64,000 bases of DNA from Novosphingobium sp. 28-62-57 (GTDB taxonomy: Bacteria; Pseudomonadota; Alphaproteobacteria; Sphingomonadales; Sphingomonadaceae). Each line of letters starts with the position of its first letter. Positions within the stretch are counted from its first letter, which is position 1. The stretch lies in contig NCGO01000001.1 in the NCBI GenBank assembly GCA_002256985.1, positions 620,001 to 684,000 on the forward strand, written 5' to 3'. Below, one piece after another: positions 9,016-52,879 of this stretch. Made by a program: the position numbers and the translations under genes. Under the pieces are notes generated by a model. It was given only the letters and a program-made list of their open reading frames with translations. It did no database searches and was not told the origin of the DNA.

Positions 9016-9092
9016 GCGGGTGTAGCTCAGTTGGTTAGAGTATCGGCCTGTCACGCCGAGGGTCGCGGGTTCAAGTCCCGTCACTCGCGCCA
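9016..9092 (+). tRNA. tRNA-Asp (anticodon GTC), copy 1
   Basis: A 77-nt cloverleaf with encoded CCA. The acceptor stem is GCGGGTG / CACTCGC, the anticodon arm is CGGCC-TGTCACG-CCG with GTC, and the T arm is CGCGGGTTCAAGTCCCG. The second copy about 440 bp downstream has the same sequence. Confidence 0.96.
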
Positions 9093-9456: not shown

Positions 9457-9533
9457 GCGGGTGTAGCTCAGTTGGTTAGAGTATCGGCCTGTCACGCCGA
9501 GGGTCGCGGGTTCAAGTCCCGTCACTCGCGCCA
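9457..9533 (+). tRNA. tRNA-Asp (anticodon GTC), copy 2
   Basis: Same 77-nt sequence as copy 1, including the encoded CCA and GTC anticodon. The matching upstream bases (promoter and GCTCCCAAGG leader) indicate a local duplication. The DUF2842 gene ends convergently 47 bases downstream. Confidence 0.96.
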
Positions 9534-48625: not shown

Positions 48626-49399
48626 ATGGCAACGGCACCTGTCCCCAATCTTTCCCGGCTATTGGCGATCATGGCGCGCTTGCGCGATCCTGAGCGTGGC
48701 TGTGAATGGGACTGTGCGCAGACCTTTGCGACGATTGCACCGTATACCATTGAAGAAGCCTATGAGGTCGACGACGCGATTACGCGCGATGATATGGGCG
48801 CACTGAAAGAAGAGCTTGGCGACCTGCTGCTGCAAGTGGTGTTCCACGCGCGCATGGCCGAGGAGCTTGGGCTGTTTTCGTTCGACGATGTGGCTGCGGC
48901 AATTTCTGACAAGATGGAAGCCCGCCATCCGCATGTCTTCGGGGATGAAGCCGACGAAGGACAATCGCGCGAGGATCGCTGGGAAAGCGCCAAGTCTGCC
49001 GAACGGGCCGCCAAGGGCGCGCAAAGTGCCATGGACGGCGTGGCATTGGCGTTGCCGGCTTTGATGCGTGCTGAAAAGCTGCAGAAGCGCGCGGCGCGTC
49101 AGGGCTTTGACTGGCCCGGTGTGGAGGGTGCTACTGATAAAGTTATCGAGGAAATTGAAGAGCTTAGAGAGGCTTCTTCAGACGCCGAACGCACTGACGA
49201 AGCGGGCGATCTGCTATTTGCCACGGTGAATGTTGTGCGCAAATATGGCGTGGCACCCGAAGACGCCCTGCGCGCAGCAAATGCGAAATTCGAGCGGCGT
49301 TTCAAAGGCATGGAAGCGCTGGCCGATGGTCGATTTGCCACGCTCCCGCTCGATGAGCAGGAAGCGCTGTGGCAAGCGGTCAAGCGGTCAGAGCGGTAA
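48626..49399 (+). CDS. mazG: Nucleoside triphosphate pyrophosphohydrolase MazG
   Basis: MazG hydrolyses non-canonical NTPs to NMP and PPi (house-cleaning). The 257-residue product is the full two-domain form: RLLAIMARLRDPERGCEWDC and APYTIEEAYEVDDAI with the EExxE metal sites (GALKEELGDLLLQVVFHARM), then a second MazG domain (DKVIEEIEELREASSDAERT, DEAGDLLFATVNVVRKYG). It does not resemble a toxin-antitoxin gene despite the Maz name. It overlaps the 3' end of convergent hflX by 20 bases. Confidence 0.94.
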   Translation: MATAPVPNLSRLLAIMARLRDPERGCEWDCAQTFATIAPYTIEEAYEVDDAITRDDMGALKEELGDLLLQVVFHARMAEELGLFSFDDVAAAISDKMEARHPHVFGDEADEGQSREDRWESAKSAERAAKGAQSAMDGVALALPALMRAEKLQKRAARQGFDWPGVEGATDKVIEEIEELREASSDAERTDEAGDLLFATVNVVRKYGVAPEDALRAANAKFERRFKGMEALADGRFATLPLDEQEALWQAVKRSER

Positions 49400-50735
49400 A
49401 GCGTCCCAATTCGCGCGGCGTCAGGCGCACTTTGATGCGCATGGCGGGTTCGTTTTCCGTGTCAGCCACCTGATCTTCTTCAAGAATGTCGCCGTGGGCG
49501 TGAAGCCAGGCGAGGCGCTGACCATCGGACAGTGGCACCGTGAGTTCGAGCGTTTGTGCGCCGCCGGTCAGCATCAGGCCAAGGTGGTGGAGCAGGGTGT
49601 CAACGCCCTCACCCGTCAGCGCCGAAACCGGAACGACGGGAATTTCAGCCACTTTTGCGGCGATAATGTCGTGCCGCATGTCCTGCTCTTCCGGTGTGAG
49701 CAGGTCCCACTTGTTCCATGCCTCGATAACGGGGACGACTGGCCCCCCTTCCCCGTTGACGCCAAGATCGGCGAGGATCTGTTCGACTTCGGCCTTCTGT
49801 TCAGCCGTGGCGGGGTTGGCGACATCGCGGACGTGGACGATCACATCGGCGGCGGTCACTTCTTCGAGCGTGGCGCGGAAAGCGGCGACGAGCTGTGTTG
49901 GCAGTTCCGAGATGAAACCGACGGTATCGGACAGGATCGCCTTGTCCACGCCCGGCAAGCGGATGGCGCGCATGGTGGGATCGAGCGTGGCGAAAAGCAG
50001 GTCTTCCGCCATGACGTCAGCCCCGGTCAGGCGATTGAAAAGCGTGGATTTTCCGGCATTGGTATAGCCGACCAGCGCAATCACCGGCCATGGTGCGCGC
50101 TGGCGGCGTTCGCGGTGCAGGCCGCGGGTGCGGCGCACTTGTTCGAGCTCCTTGCGCAGACGTGACATGCGCGTGCGGATCTGGCGACGGTCCGCCTCGA
50201 TCTGGGTTTCACCGGGGCCGCCAAGGAAGCCGAAGCCGCCGCGTTGGCGTTCCAAGTGAGTCCATGACCGGACAAGACGCCCTGCCTGATAATCGAGATG
50301 GGCCAGTTCGACCTGCAACCGACCTTCGGCCGTGGCGGCGCGTTCCCCGAAGATTTCGAGGATGAGGCCGGTGCGGTCGATGACCTTGCGCTTGAGCTTG
50401 TCTTCCAGATTGCGCTGCTGGATGGCCGATAGCGCACCATCGATGATGACCAGTTCGGCGTCGGACTGGTTGCAGGCGACGCTGATACGCTCAACCTGCC
50501 CTTCCCCGAACAGGGTGGAGGGGCGCACCGCGCGGATCGGAAGGATAAAGGCATCGACCACTTCGATGCCGATGGCGCGGGCAAGCCCCTGCCCTTCTTC
50601 AAGCCGTGTTTCCGCGTCTGCGCCGAGGCCCCCTCCCCGCTGCTTGATATCGGGGAGGACGACGACGGCGCGCGCGCCACGGGTGACTTCACCGGCTATC
50701 TCGCCGGTATTGTTGCCAAATTCAAACGTGCTCAG
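49380..50735 (-). CDS. hflX: Ribosome-associated GTPase HflX
   Basis: HflX is a GTPase that splits stalled 70S ribosomes, especially after heat shock. The product is about 451 residues: N-terminal HflX domain ([55 protein letters not shown]), a coiled region ([20 protein letters not shown]) and the GTPase domain with P-loop [21 protein letters not shown] and EAWNKWDLL. The first ATG/GTG/TTG in frame (GTG 50561) would delete the first third of the conserved N-domain. The only initiator upstream is CTG 50735, overlapping the hfq stop as CTGA, so I use it. The hfq-hflX order is widely conserved. Confidence 0.9.
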
Positions 50736-51313
50736 GAATCCTCGCCATCCCAGTCGCCGGTGAGATCAACGTGACCGGCAGGCTGTATTGTTGAAACGGC
50801 ATGCTTGTAGGCGAGCTGGACATAGCCCTCACGCTCAAGCAGCATGCAGAAAAGATCGTAGGAAGCGACGCGGCCCTGCAGCATCACGCCGTTGACCAGG
50901 AACATCGTGACCTGCACGGCGGCATCGCGCACGCTGGACAGGAACACTTCCTGCAGCAGGCGCGCCTTCTTGCCGTTTTCTTCGCCGCCCGACTGGAAGT
51001 GGGCCACCGAAAGCTGAACGCCGGGCATGATCGTGGAGATCGCGTGCTTGTAGACCAGCTGTGACTGGCCATCGCGACGAAGCAGGATCGAGAAATTATC
51101 AAACCACGTGACGATGCCCTGCAGCTTTACGCCTTTCACGAGGAACATCGTGACCGGAATCTTGTTTTTGCGCAGGTGGTTGAGGAACAGGTCCTGAAGA
51201 TTCTGCCCTTTTCCGCCGCTGGGTCCGGTTGTGGGTGCTGGTGCCGGTGCTTCTTCAGCGGGGGCAGGTTCAGCTTTGGGCCGAGGGCGGGCAGTGAGCG
51301 TTTTTCCGGTCAT
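50732..51313 (-). CDS. hfq: RNA chaperone Hfq with two tandem Sm domains
   Basis: Hfq normally is an ~80-102-residue protein forming a homohexamer that pairs sRNAs with mRNAs. This 193-residue chain holds two complete Sm domains. Residues 1-35 are a Pro/Ala-rich extension. Domain 1 (36-98) has [28 protein letters not shown] and the Sm2 motif VYKHAISTI. Domain 2 (116-178) has [26 protein letters not shown] and AYKHAVSTI. Relative to E. coli, domain 1 keeps Q8, D9 and K31, while domain 2 has Met at the K31 position and a neutralised rim (RDAA against RRER; domain 1 RKNK). Both have Phe for Tyr25. Three chains could build a pseudo-hexamer. GGAG precedes the ATG. It sits between ntrX and hflX. 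Confidence 0.96.
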
Positions 51314-51493: not shown

Positions 51494-52879
51494 TCAGTCC
51501 TCGTCGTCCTCATCCTTGCGATCCGCCATGCCGAGCAGCTTGAGTTTGCGGTGAAGCGCTGACCGCTCCATGCCGATGAAGCTGGCGGTTTTGGAGATAT
51601 TGCCGGAGAAACGGCGGATCTGGACCTTCAGATACTCACGCTCAAAGTTTTCGCGCGCCTCTCGCAAGGGCACGCCCATCAGCGTGGAACCGCCCGATTC
51701 GCCGCCGATGGGCGTGGCGACGATTTCGGATGGCAGCATATCGGCATCGATCCGTGCCAAACGATCCCGCGGGGCGAGAATCACTGTGCGTTCGACCACG
51801 TTCCGCAACTGGCGCACATTGCCGGGCCAATCATAGCTTTGCAGCGCGGCCATGGCTTCGGGCGAGACGGCGGGCGGGGTTACGCCCTGTTCGCTGGCGT
51901 GGCGGGTGAAGAAGTGATCGACCAGCGCGGGGATATCGTCGCGCCGGTCCATCAGCGAGGGGATGGCCACGGGCACGACGTTCAGCCGGTAATAGAGGTC
52001 TTCGCGGAAGCGACGTTCGGCGATTTCCTTTTCCAGCGGGCGCGAGGAGGAGGAAACGACCCGCACGTCCACGCGCAGCTGGCGGTGGCCACCGACGCGG
52101 GCGAAGGACTGCTCGGTCAGCACGCGCAAGATGCGCGCCTGGCTCGACGGCGGCATGTCGGAGACTTCATCGAGGAACAGCGTGCCGCCATCGGCCATTT
52201 CGAGCAGGCCGGTGCGCACCAGCTTGCCGTCGACTTCTTCGCCGAACAGTTCCTGTTCGAAGCGCTCGGGCGTGATGCGGGCGGAGTTTACCGTGACGAA
52301 GGCGTTTTGCGCGCGCGGGCTCCACGAATGGAGCAGGCGGGCGGCGACTTCCTTGCCCGAGCCGGCAGGCCCGGTGATCAGCAGACGGCTGCCGGTACTG
52401 GCCACGCGCTTCAAGGTGGCGCGCACCTGGTTGATGGCAGAGCTGTTGCCGGTGAATTCCTCGGCCATGGCAAAGCCTTGGCGCAGGCGCTGATTTTCGC
52501 GGCGCAGGCGTTCGGTTTCGGTGGCGCGTTCGACCAGCAGCAGCAGGCGTTCGGCCTCGAACGGCTTTTCGAGAAAGTCCATCGCGCCGCGGCTGATCGC
52601 GGAGACGGCGGTATCGATGTTGCCGTGGCCGGAGAAGATGATCACCGGCAGTTCGGGTTCGCGCTTCTTGATTTCGTCCAGCACTTCGAGCCCGTCCATC
52701 GGGCTGCCGTGGAGCCAGACATCGAGCAGCACGAGGCTGGGGCGGCGTTCATCGATGGCGGCGAGCGCTGAGGTGCTGTCAGCCGCGAGGCGGCAGCCAT
52801 AGCCTTCGTCAGACAATACGCCTGCGACCAGTTCGCGGATATCGCGTTCATCGTCCACGATGAGGATGTCGAGTGCCAT
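51494..52879 (-). CDS. ntrX: Response regulator NtrX lacking the GAFTGA loop
   Basis: NtrX is the partner of NtrY in nitrogen and redox control. The 461-residue product has a receiver domain with Asp53 (VLLDVWLHG) and the late FLEKPF lysine, an AAA+ domain with Walker A ITGPAGSGKEVAARL and Walker B GGTLFLDEV, and a Fis-type HTH (GNISKTASFIGMERSALHRK). Where sigma-54 activators have GAFTGA, this protein reads ELFGEEVDGKLVRTGLLEMA, so the sigma-54 contact loop is missing. It probably binds DNA and regulates without activating sigma-54 in the classical way. It ends in an acidic tail (DRKDEDDED). It begins 12 bases after ntrY. Confidence 0.94.
   Translation of the reverse strand: MALDILIVDDERDIRELVAGVLSDEGYGCRLAADSTSALAAIDERRPSLVLLDVWLHGSPMDGLEVLDEIKKREPELPVIIFSGHGNIDTAVSAISRGAMDFLEKPFEAERLLLLVERATETERLRRENQRLRQGFAMAEEFTGNSSAINQVRATLKRVASTGSRLLITGPAGSGKEVAARLLHSWSPRAQNAFVTVNSARITPERFEQELFGEEVDGKLVRTGLLEMADGGTLFLDEVSDMPPSSQARILRVLTEQSFARVGGHRQLRVDVRVVSSSSRPLEKEIAERRFREDLYYRLNVVPVAIPSLMDRRDDIPALVDHFFTRHASEQGVTPPAVSPEAMAALQSYDWPGNVRQLRNVVERTVILAPRDRLARIDADMLPSEIVATPIGGESGGSTLMGVPLREARENFEREYLKVQIRRFSGNISKTASFIGMERSALHRKLKLLGMADRKDEDDED

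What the first reader, a model, noticed from the sequence alone, without database searches (positions are those of the whole stretch)
50732..51313. Hfq with two diverged Sm domains in one chain
Seen directly: one 193-residue frame contains two full Hfq Sm domains (residues 36-98 and 116-178), each with its own YKHA motif. Known: canonical Hfq is a homohexamer of single-domain chains, with proximal, distal and rim RNA sites. Inference: the chain could build a pseudo-hexamer from three copies with alternating subunits, or a larger double ring. Domain 2 has lost the K31-equivalent (Met) and the basic rim (RDAA), while domain 1 keeps both (RKNK). The ring could thus have alternating active and altered sites, changing which sRNA or mRNA motifs it binds. 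I have a vague memory of tandem Hfq in sphingomonads but cannot verify it.
Basis: partly seen in the sequence, partly recalled or inferred. Interest (0 to 1): 0.85.

Follow-up and report, generated by a model that had tools for sequence, protein, structure and literature searches.

The report
Double-domain Hfq of sphingomonads
The gene is a real double version of the bacterial RNA-matchmaking protein Hfq, already reported from this group of bacteria; what stands out is that its two halves seem to have split the work, one half keeping the RNA-binding edge and the other carrying the acidic tail that normally restrains such an edge.

Summary
Confirmed: window 50732-51313 (-) encodes one 193-aa protein with two Hfq Sm domains, the genome's only hfq. 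It is not an artefact and not new: PMC2877685 (2010) reported two Sm-like domains in Zymomonas Hfq and six other Sphingomonadales and asked whether three chains make the ring; NCBIfam NF010691 models the tandem.

New here: 225 of 236 sampled genomes of the window's family have two Hfq matches; outside it no full-length tandem match appeared. A HflX tree fits one origin. In 128 of 128 distinct tandem proteins domain 1 gained Lys at E. coli position 28 and domain 2 has Met at 31; 49 of 49 single-domain proteins have Asn28/Lys31. The basic rim is intact in domain 1 (+5 in 128/128; domain 2 median +1); the acidic tail follows domain 2. Both keep the uridine pore. AlphaFold2 fixes the two domains relative to each other.

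In Caulobacter Hfq the short tail reaches the neighbouring subunit's rim. Best reading: a three-chain ring of alternating domains whose three active rims are each restrained by another chain's tail. The oligomer is unmeasured; a stacked double ring is not excluded. One subclade has lost the tail and, in part, the rim.

The parts
50732..51313 (-). tandem hfq, 193 aa plus stop
51209..51313 (-). N-terminal extension, residues 1-35, with TLTARPRP then Ala/Pro-rich; low model confidence
   Evidence: motif of this kind found upstream of domain 1 in 52 of 128 distinct tandem proteins by one regular expression; pLDDT about 48-64 per ten-residue block
51020..51208 (-). Sm domain 1, residues 36-98; Lys60 and Lys63 = E. 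coli 28 and 31; rim R48 K49 K51; YKH 88-90
50969..51019 (-). linker, residues 99-115, low model confidence
   Evidence: 17-25 residues between Pro64 of domain 1 and Leu7 of domain 2 in 128 proteins, median net charge 0
50780..50968 (-). Sm domain 2, residues 116-178; Asn141 and Met144 = E. coli 28 and 31; rim decayed; YKH 169-171; Gln177 = position 63
50735..50779 (-). acidic tail, residues 179-193 ([15 protein letters not shown])
   Evidence: tail net charge median -5.5, at or below -3 in 127 of 128
51494..52879 (-). ntrX, upstream neighbour
   Evidence: NF051870 739 bits, cut-off 600
49380..50561 (-). hflX, downstream neighbour; true start probably lies upstream, near the hfq stop
   Evidence: TIGR03156 425 bits, cut-off 216.75, matched only from profile position 36

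Best explanation
One hfq was duplicated head to tail in frame, once, within the family that holds the window's genus (Novosphingobium by named relatives). The product is the cell's only Hfq. Three chains most likely build one six-domain ring in which domains 1 and 2 alternate. All six positions keep the uridine pore and the main adenine contacts. The rim, which catalyses sRNA-mRNA annealing, is active only on the three domain-1 positions. The linker from each domain 1 runs over the neighbouring domain 2, whose rim has decayed. Each domain 2 sends an acidic tail to the rim of the domain 1 that follows it, so three rims are restrained by three tails instead of six by six. The distal lysines were redistributed: domain 1 carries two (28, 31), domain 2 none. 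Shown: sequence facts, their conservation, the trees. Inferred: ring composition, tail-to-rim contact, effect on RNA choice.
For: Own genome has no other Hfq. Position 28 is Lys in 128/128 domain 1, Asn in 128/128 domain 2 and Asn in 49/49 single-domain proteins; position 31 is Lys, Met and Lys; Gln8, Gly29, Leu32, Gly34, Gln52, Tyr55, Lys56, His57, Ser60 and Thr61 are invariant in both domains of all 128. Rim charge (16, 17, 19, 46a, 47) is +5 in 128/128 domain 1 and 49/49 singles, median +1 (range -2 to +4) in domain 2; tail median -5.5, linker median 0. Two AlphaFold2 models give pTM 0.74 and 0.82, where unplaced domains would give at most about 0.44 and 0.53 (own estimate). In Caulobacter Hfq, the nearest solved relative, the 15-aa tail of one chain contacts rim residues R18, K19, K21 of the adjacent chain (PMC6561178, passages). 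Both domains are under purifying selection: median dN/dS 0.09 and 0.19 over 1136 of 2701 pairs. In one clade of seven genomes (SH-aLRT 98, starred) the acidic tail is gone in 7/7 and the domain-1 rim is below +5 in 4/7.
Against: No oligomer was measured or modelled; the model tool gave no coordinates or inter-domain error, so which surfaces touch is unknown. No solved tandem Hfq turned up. Inter-domain covariation was underpowered (effective sequences 18) and picked out no known interface. Domain 2 evolves about twice as fast, which also fits a passive half. Two of the seven tail-less proteins have basic tails and one neighbour clade member keeps a full rim without a tail, so rim and tail are not strictly tied.
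Confidence: 0.6

Rival explanations
1. Six chains form two stacked rings, one of domain 1 and one of domain 2, joined by the linkers (a double ring of twelve Sm domains).
For: Linker of 17-25 residues is long enough in principle; each domain keeps its own ring-forming residues.
Against: The fixed placement of the two domains in both AlphaFold2 models fits side-by-side packing at least as well; a domain-2 ring would have no Lys31 and little rim; the tail would have to reach the other ring.
Confidence: 0.13
2. Domain 1 alone forms an ordinary hexamer; domain 2 is an appendage that modulates it or brings in partners.
For: Domain 1 looks like canonical Hfq (mean identity to singles about 0.80; domain 2 about 0.60-0.62); domain 2 evolves faster.
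Against: Pore residues Gln8, Lys56, His57 and the beta5 residues Ser60, Thr61 are invariant in domain 2 of 128/128, which a free appendage would not need; no member of the tandem clade in the HflX tree had gone back to one domain.
Confidence: 0.12
3. Alternating ring, but without special function: complementary loss after duplication simply locked the two halves together (neutral ratchet).
For: Rim lost in domain 2, tail absent from domain 1, both reciprocal and never reversed in the sample.
Against: The gain of Lys28 in domain 1 in 128/128 and strict conservation of Met31 in domain 2 look like selected, not decayed, sites, though not decisively: four of nine extra divergent proteins have Leu, Ala or Ser at 31.
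Confidence: 0.15

Closest known systems
Zymomonas mobilis Hfq, ZMO0347 (PMC2877685; 161 aa in strain ATCC 29191 per PMC4004385; passages seen)
   Same: Two Sm-like domains in one chain, same order of bacteria; paper proposes a three-chain ring as an open question.
   Different: Shorter, without the N-terminal extension of the window protein by its length; no residue-level comparison was made by me because its sequence was not fetched.
NCBIfam NF010691 / PRK14091.1, RNA chaperone Hfq (176 positions)
   Same: Full-length match above the curated cut-off; the family is the tandem form.
   Different: Nothing tested; the model carries no statement on architecture.
Caulobacter crescentus Hfq, PDB 6GWK (PMC6561178)
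   Same: Nearest solved relative of domain 1; acidic tail and basic rim.
   Different: One domain per chain, six identical rims and six tails.
Eukaryotic Sm/LSm hetero-heptamers (background from passages of PMC2877685)
   Same: A ring in which non-identical Sm domains hold fixed places, if the alternating ring is right.
   Different: Separate genes, seven positions; here one gene and an inferred six.

Membership tests
Hfq (Pfam PF17209) | Hfq Sm domain above the curated cut-off | tested here: met
   Two stretches, 181 bits against 27
Hfq (Pfam PF17209) | Conserved proximal pore YKH and Gln8 | tested here: met
   Invariant in both domains of 128/128 distinct tandem proteins; domain 1 has YKQ in 3 of the 7 divergent extra proteins
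Hfq (Pfam PF17209) | Homohexameric ring of single-domain chains | not testable with these tools
   Two domains per chain; oligomer not measured
Hfq (Pfam PF17209) | Binds sRNAs and promotes pairing | not testable with these tools
   No experiment; phenotypes of a tandem hfq mutant are known for Zymomonas (PMC2877685, passages)
Tandem Hfq NF010691 | Full-length match above 270 bits | tested here: met
   308.6 bits, residues 24-192
Hfq hexamer with acidic-tail autoinhibition (Caulobacter/E. coli type) | Basic rim plus acidic C-terminal tip in the same particle | tested here: met
   Rim on domain 1 and tail behind domain 2; contact itself not testable here
Eukaryotic-type hetero Sm ring | Non-identical Sm domains at fixed positions of one ring | not testable with these tools
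   Inferred only

The most novel reading that the evidence does not exclude
Sphingomonad Hfq is a bacterial, covalently fixed version of a hetero-Sm ring: domains 1 and 2 alternate, annealing rims exist only on domain 1, each restrained in trans by the tail of another chain's domain 2, and a reciprocal lysine change at distal positions 28 and 31 locks the order and sets up two kinds of mRNA-binding site in one ring.
Probability: 0.5. Interest if true: 0.68.

Novelty: already known. Interest (0 to 1): 0.42.

Why it matters
The object is known, but its division of labour seems not to be described in the papers that the searches reached (open-licence library only). If the alternating ring is right, nature has made a half-rim, half-tail Hfq: the number of rims and tails per ring, and which subunit's tail acts on which rim, can be tested without engineering linked subunits. 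It would also be a simple bacterial case for how Sm rings turn from identical to non-identical subunits, which happened in eukaryotes and cannot be replayed there.

Tried and rejected
Frameshift or assembly artefact: rejected. Foreign origin of domain 2: not favoured; domain 2 shares the extra residue 46a with the alphaproteobacterial singles, and Met24 (106 of 128) with domain 1 (100 of 128) and the family's single-domain proteins (8 of 9), against 0 of 40 other singles; the domain tree makes domain 1 and domain 2 each one group (100/97) but cannot place domain 2 firmly, as long branches meet. Tandem outside the family: class search 387 genomes, 6 over the cut-off, all in the family, best outside 147 bits; phylum search 397 genomes, 19 over the cut-off, all in the family, plus one family member at 261 bits, best outside 145.7 bits; the one order relative with two matches (G001) has a second fragment of 38 positions on another contig. 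Plasmids and phages: one Sphingomonas parapaucimobilis replicon of 880 kb with an hfq/hflX match over 83% of the query, not opened; the other matches listed look single-domain. Covariation between domains: inconclusive. Separate start of domain 2 inside the linker: in-frame ATG in 23, GTG in 24 and TTG in 42 of 74 linkers, not conserved, so not pursued; the window's linker has one GTG and no ATG or TTG among the codons printed. Structure search: single-domain Hfq chains only, no chain covering both domains among those listed. Rfam over the window: five tRNAs, nothing at hfq. Zymomonas papers PMC7546472 (no passage found), PMC9797736, PMC5770649: no statement on architecture in the passages seen.

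Full report
Observation. The window's minus strand 51313-50732 holds one 193-aa frame with two Hfq domains and a full match to the tandem-Hfq model NF010691. Upstream lie ntrB, ntrC, ntrY and ntrX and downstream hflX, all on the minus strand, with mazG convergent (ntrB and ntrC reach no NCBIfam cut-off and are named from best match and order). The genome has no other Hfq.

Prior art. PMC2877685 (passages by term search) states that Zymomonas mobilis Hfq has two Sm-like domains, that six other Sphingomonadales share this, and that structural work is needed to test whether three proteins form the ring. I found no later structural work in seven searches of an open-licence library, and no solved structure covering both domains. 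So the finding and its main hypothesis are in print.

Distribution. Of 297 genomes of the order, 236 belong to the window's family; 225 have two Hfq matches and 11 one, the latter in 7 of the family's 51 genera. Of 61 genomes in other families, 59 have one match, one has none, and one (G001) has a second fragment. The class search (387 genomes) and the phylum search (397) found no tandem-length match outside the family; the best outside scores were 147.0 and 145.7 bits against 261-316 bits for the tandem members in those lists. Those lists print only the best rows, but they are sorted by score.

Origin. In a quick HflX tree of 74 rows (45 of the tandem loci held, all 11 family singles, 18 other singles) tandem is one clade, SH-aLRT 90, not starred, and the state changes once; the root is weak. 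The singles of the family fall outside the tandem clade. In a domain tree of 72 rows domain 1 and domain 2 each form one group (100/97), which means that the duplication came before the radiation. Met24 unites both domains with the family's own singles.

Division of labour. Of 139 loci with both domains (4 of them copies of the window's gene) 10 duplicates and one partial were dropped, leaving 128 distinct proteins, set against 9 distinct family singles and 40 other distinct singles. Position 28: Lys in 128/128 domain 1, Asn in 128/128 domain 2 and 49/49 singles. Position 31: Lys 128/128, Met 128/128, Lys 49/49. Position 63: Met or Val in domain 1, Gln in 128/128 domain 2. Trp38 is kept in domain 1 and lost in domain 2. 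Pore and adenine-pocket residues are kept in both. Rim charge is +5 in all domain 1 and all singles, and median +1 in domain 2; the tail behind domain 2 has median charge -5.5 and the linker 0. Nine further proteins from one genus were read later: Lys28 in domain 1 and Asn28 in domain 2 hold in 9/9; position 31 is basic in domain 1 (Lys or Arg) and non-basic in domain 2 (Met 5, Ala 2, Leu 1, Ser 1) in 9/9; Gln63 fails in 4/9. Residue numbers before position 28 in domain 2 of these nine may be shifted by small gaps and are not used.

Roles of these sites, from passages in papers: the R16A rim change nearly abolishes sRNA-mRNA chimeras and K31A reduces them to 28% in E. coli (PMC12262471, 12 of 44 places); the Lys31 backbone binds the A-site phosphate and the Asn28 backbone helps to form a pocket for the third base (PMC8121710). 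Both of these backbone contacts could survive a side-chain change, so the RNA effect of 28/31 is open.

Structure. AlphaFold2 gives canonical Hfq folds for both domains: mean pLDDT 84, pTM 0.74 for the window protein; 87, pTM 0.82 for a 57%-identical relative. Simple ceilings for two unplaced domains are about 0.44 and 0.53, so the two domains have a fixed mutual placement in the models; the surfaces are not known to me. In Caulobacter Hfq (PMC6561178, 12 of 21 places) the acidic tip of one chain's 15-aa tail contacts rim residues R18, K19 and K21 of the adjacent chain, equal to positions 16, 17 and 19 here. A linker of 17-25 residues starting at the same point therefore leads naturally to the neighbour's first helix, and the tail of domain 2 to the rim of the next domain 1. 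This is the core of the alternating-ring reading, and it is inference.

Natural exception. Seven genomes of one genus form one clade (SH-aLRT 98, starred) with a short tandem Hfq whose acidic tail is gone (net charge -1 to +1 in 7/7) and whose domain-1 rim is below +5 in 4/7; 128/128 others have both a rim of +5 and a negative tail. This fits a tail that serves the rim, but it is one clade, and three members keep +5 without a tail.

Verdict. Real, sole, conserved, already known; the split of rim and tail and the reciprocal change at 28/31 appear undescribed in what I could search. Interest 0.42.

Noticed in passing
   Followed up: partly
window 50561-50734, minus strand: hflX shows no ATG, GTG or TTG at its conserved N-terminus just behind the hfq stop; the first such start (GTG, 50561) misses the first 35 positions of TIGR03156. 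A CTG or other unusual start is possible.
   Followed up: partly
L206 (1 of the loci): A tandem hfq whose domain 1 is split between two frames in an assembly of 86% completeness; sequencing error is possible. Described only.
   Followed up: no
window 51209-51313, minus strand: N-terminal extension with a (R/K)TL(S/T)ARP-like motif in 52 of 128 tandem proteins, in Novosphingobium and Erythrobacteraceae members; absent in the Sphingomonas, Sphingobium and Sphingopyxis rows examined.
   Followed up: partly
window 9016-9089 and 9457-9530: Two tRNA genes with the same score and length about 440 bases apart; sequences not compared.
   Followed up: no
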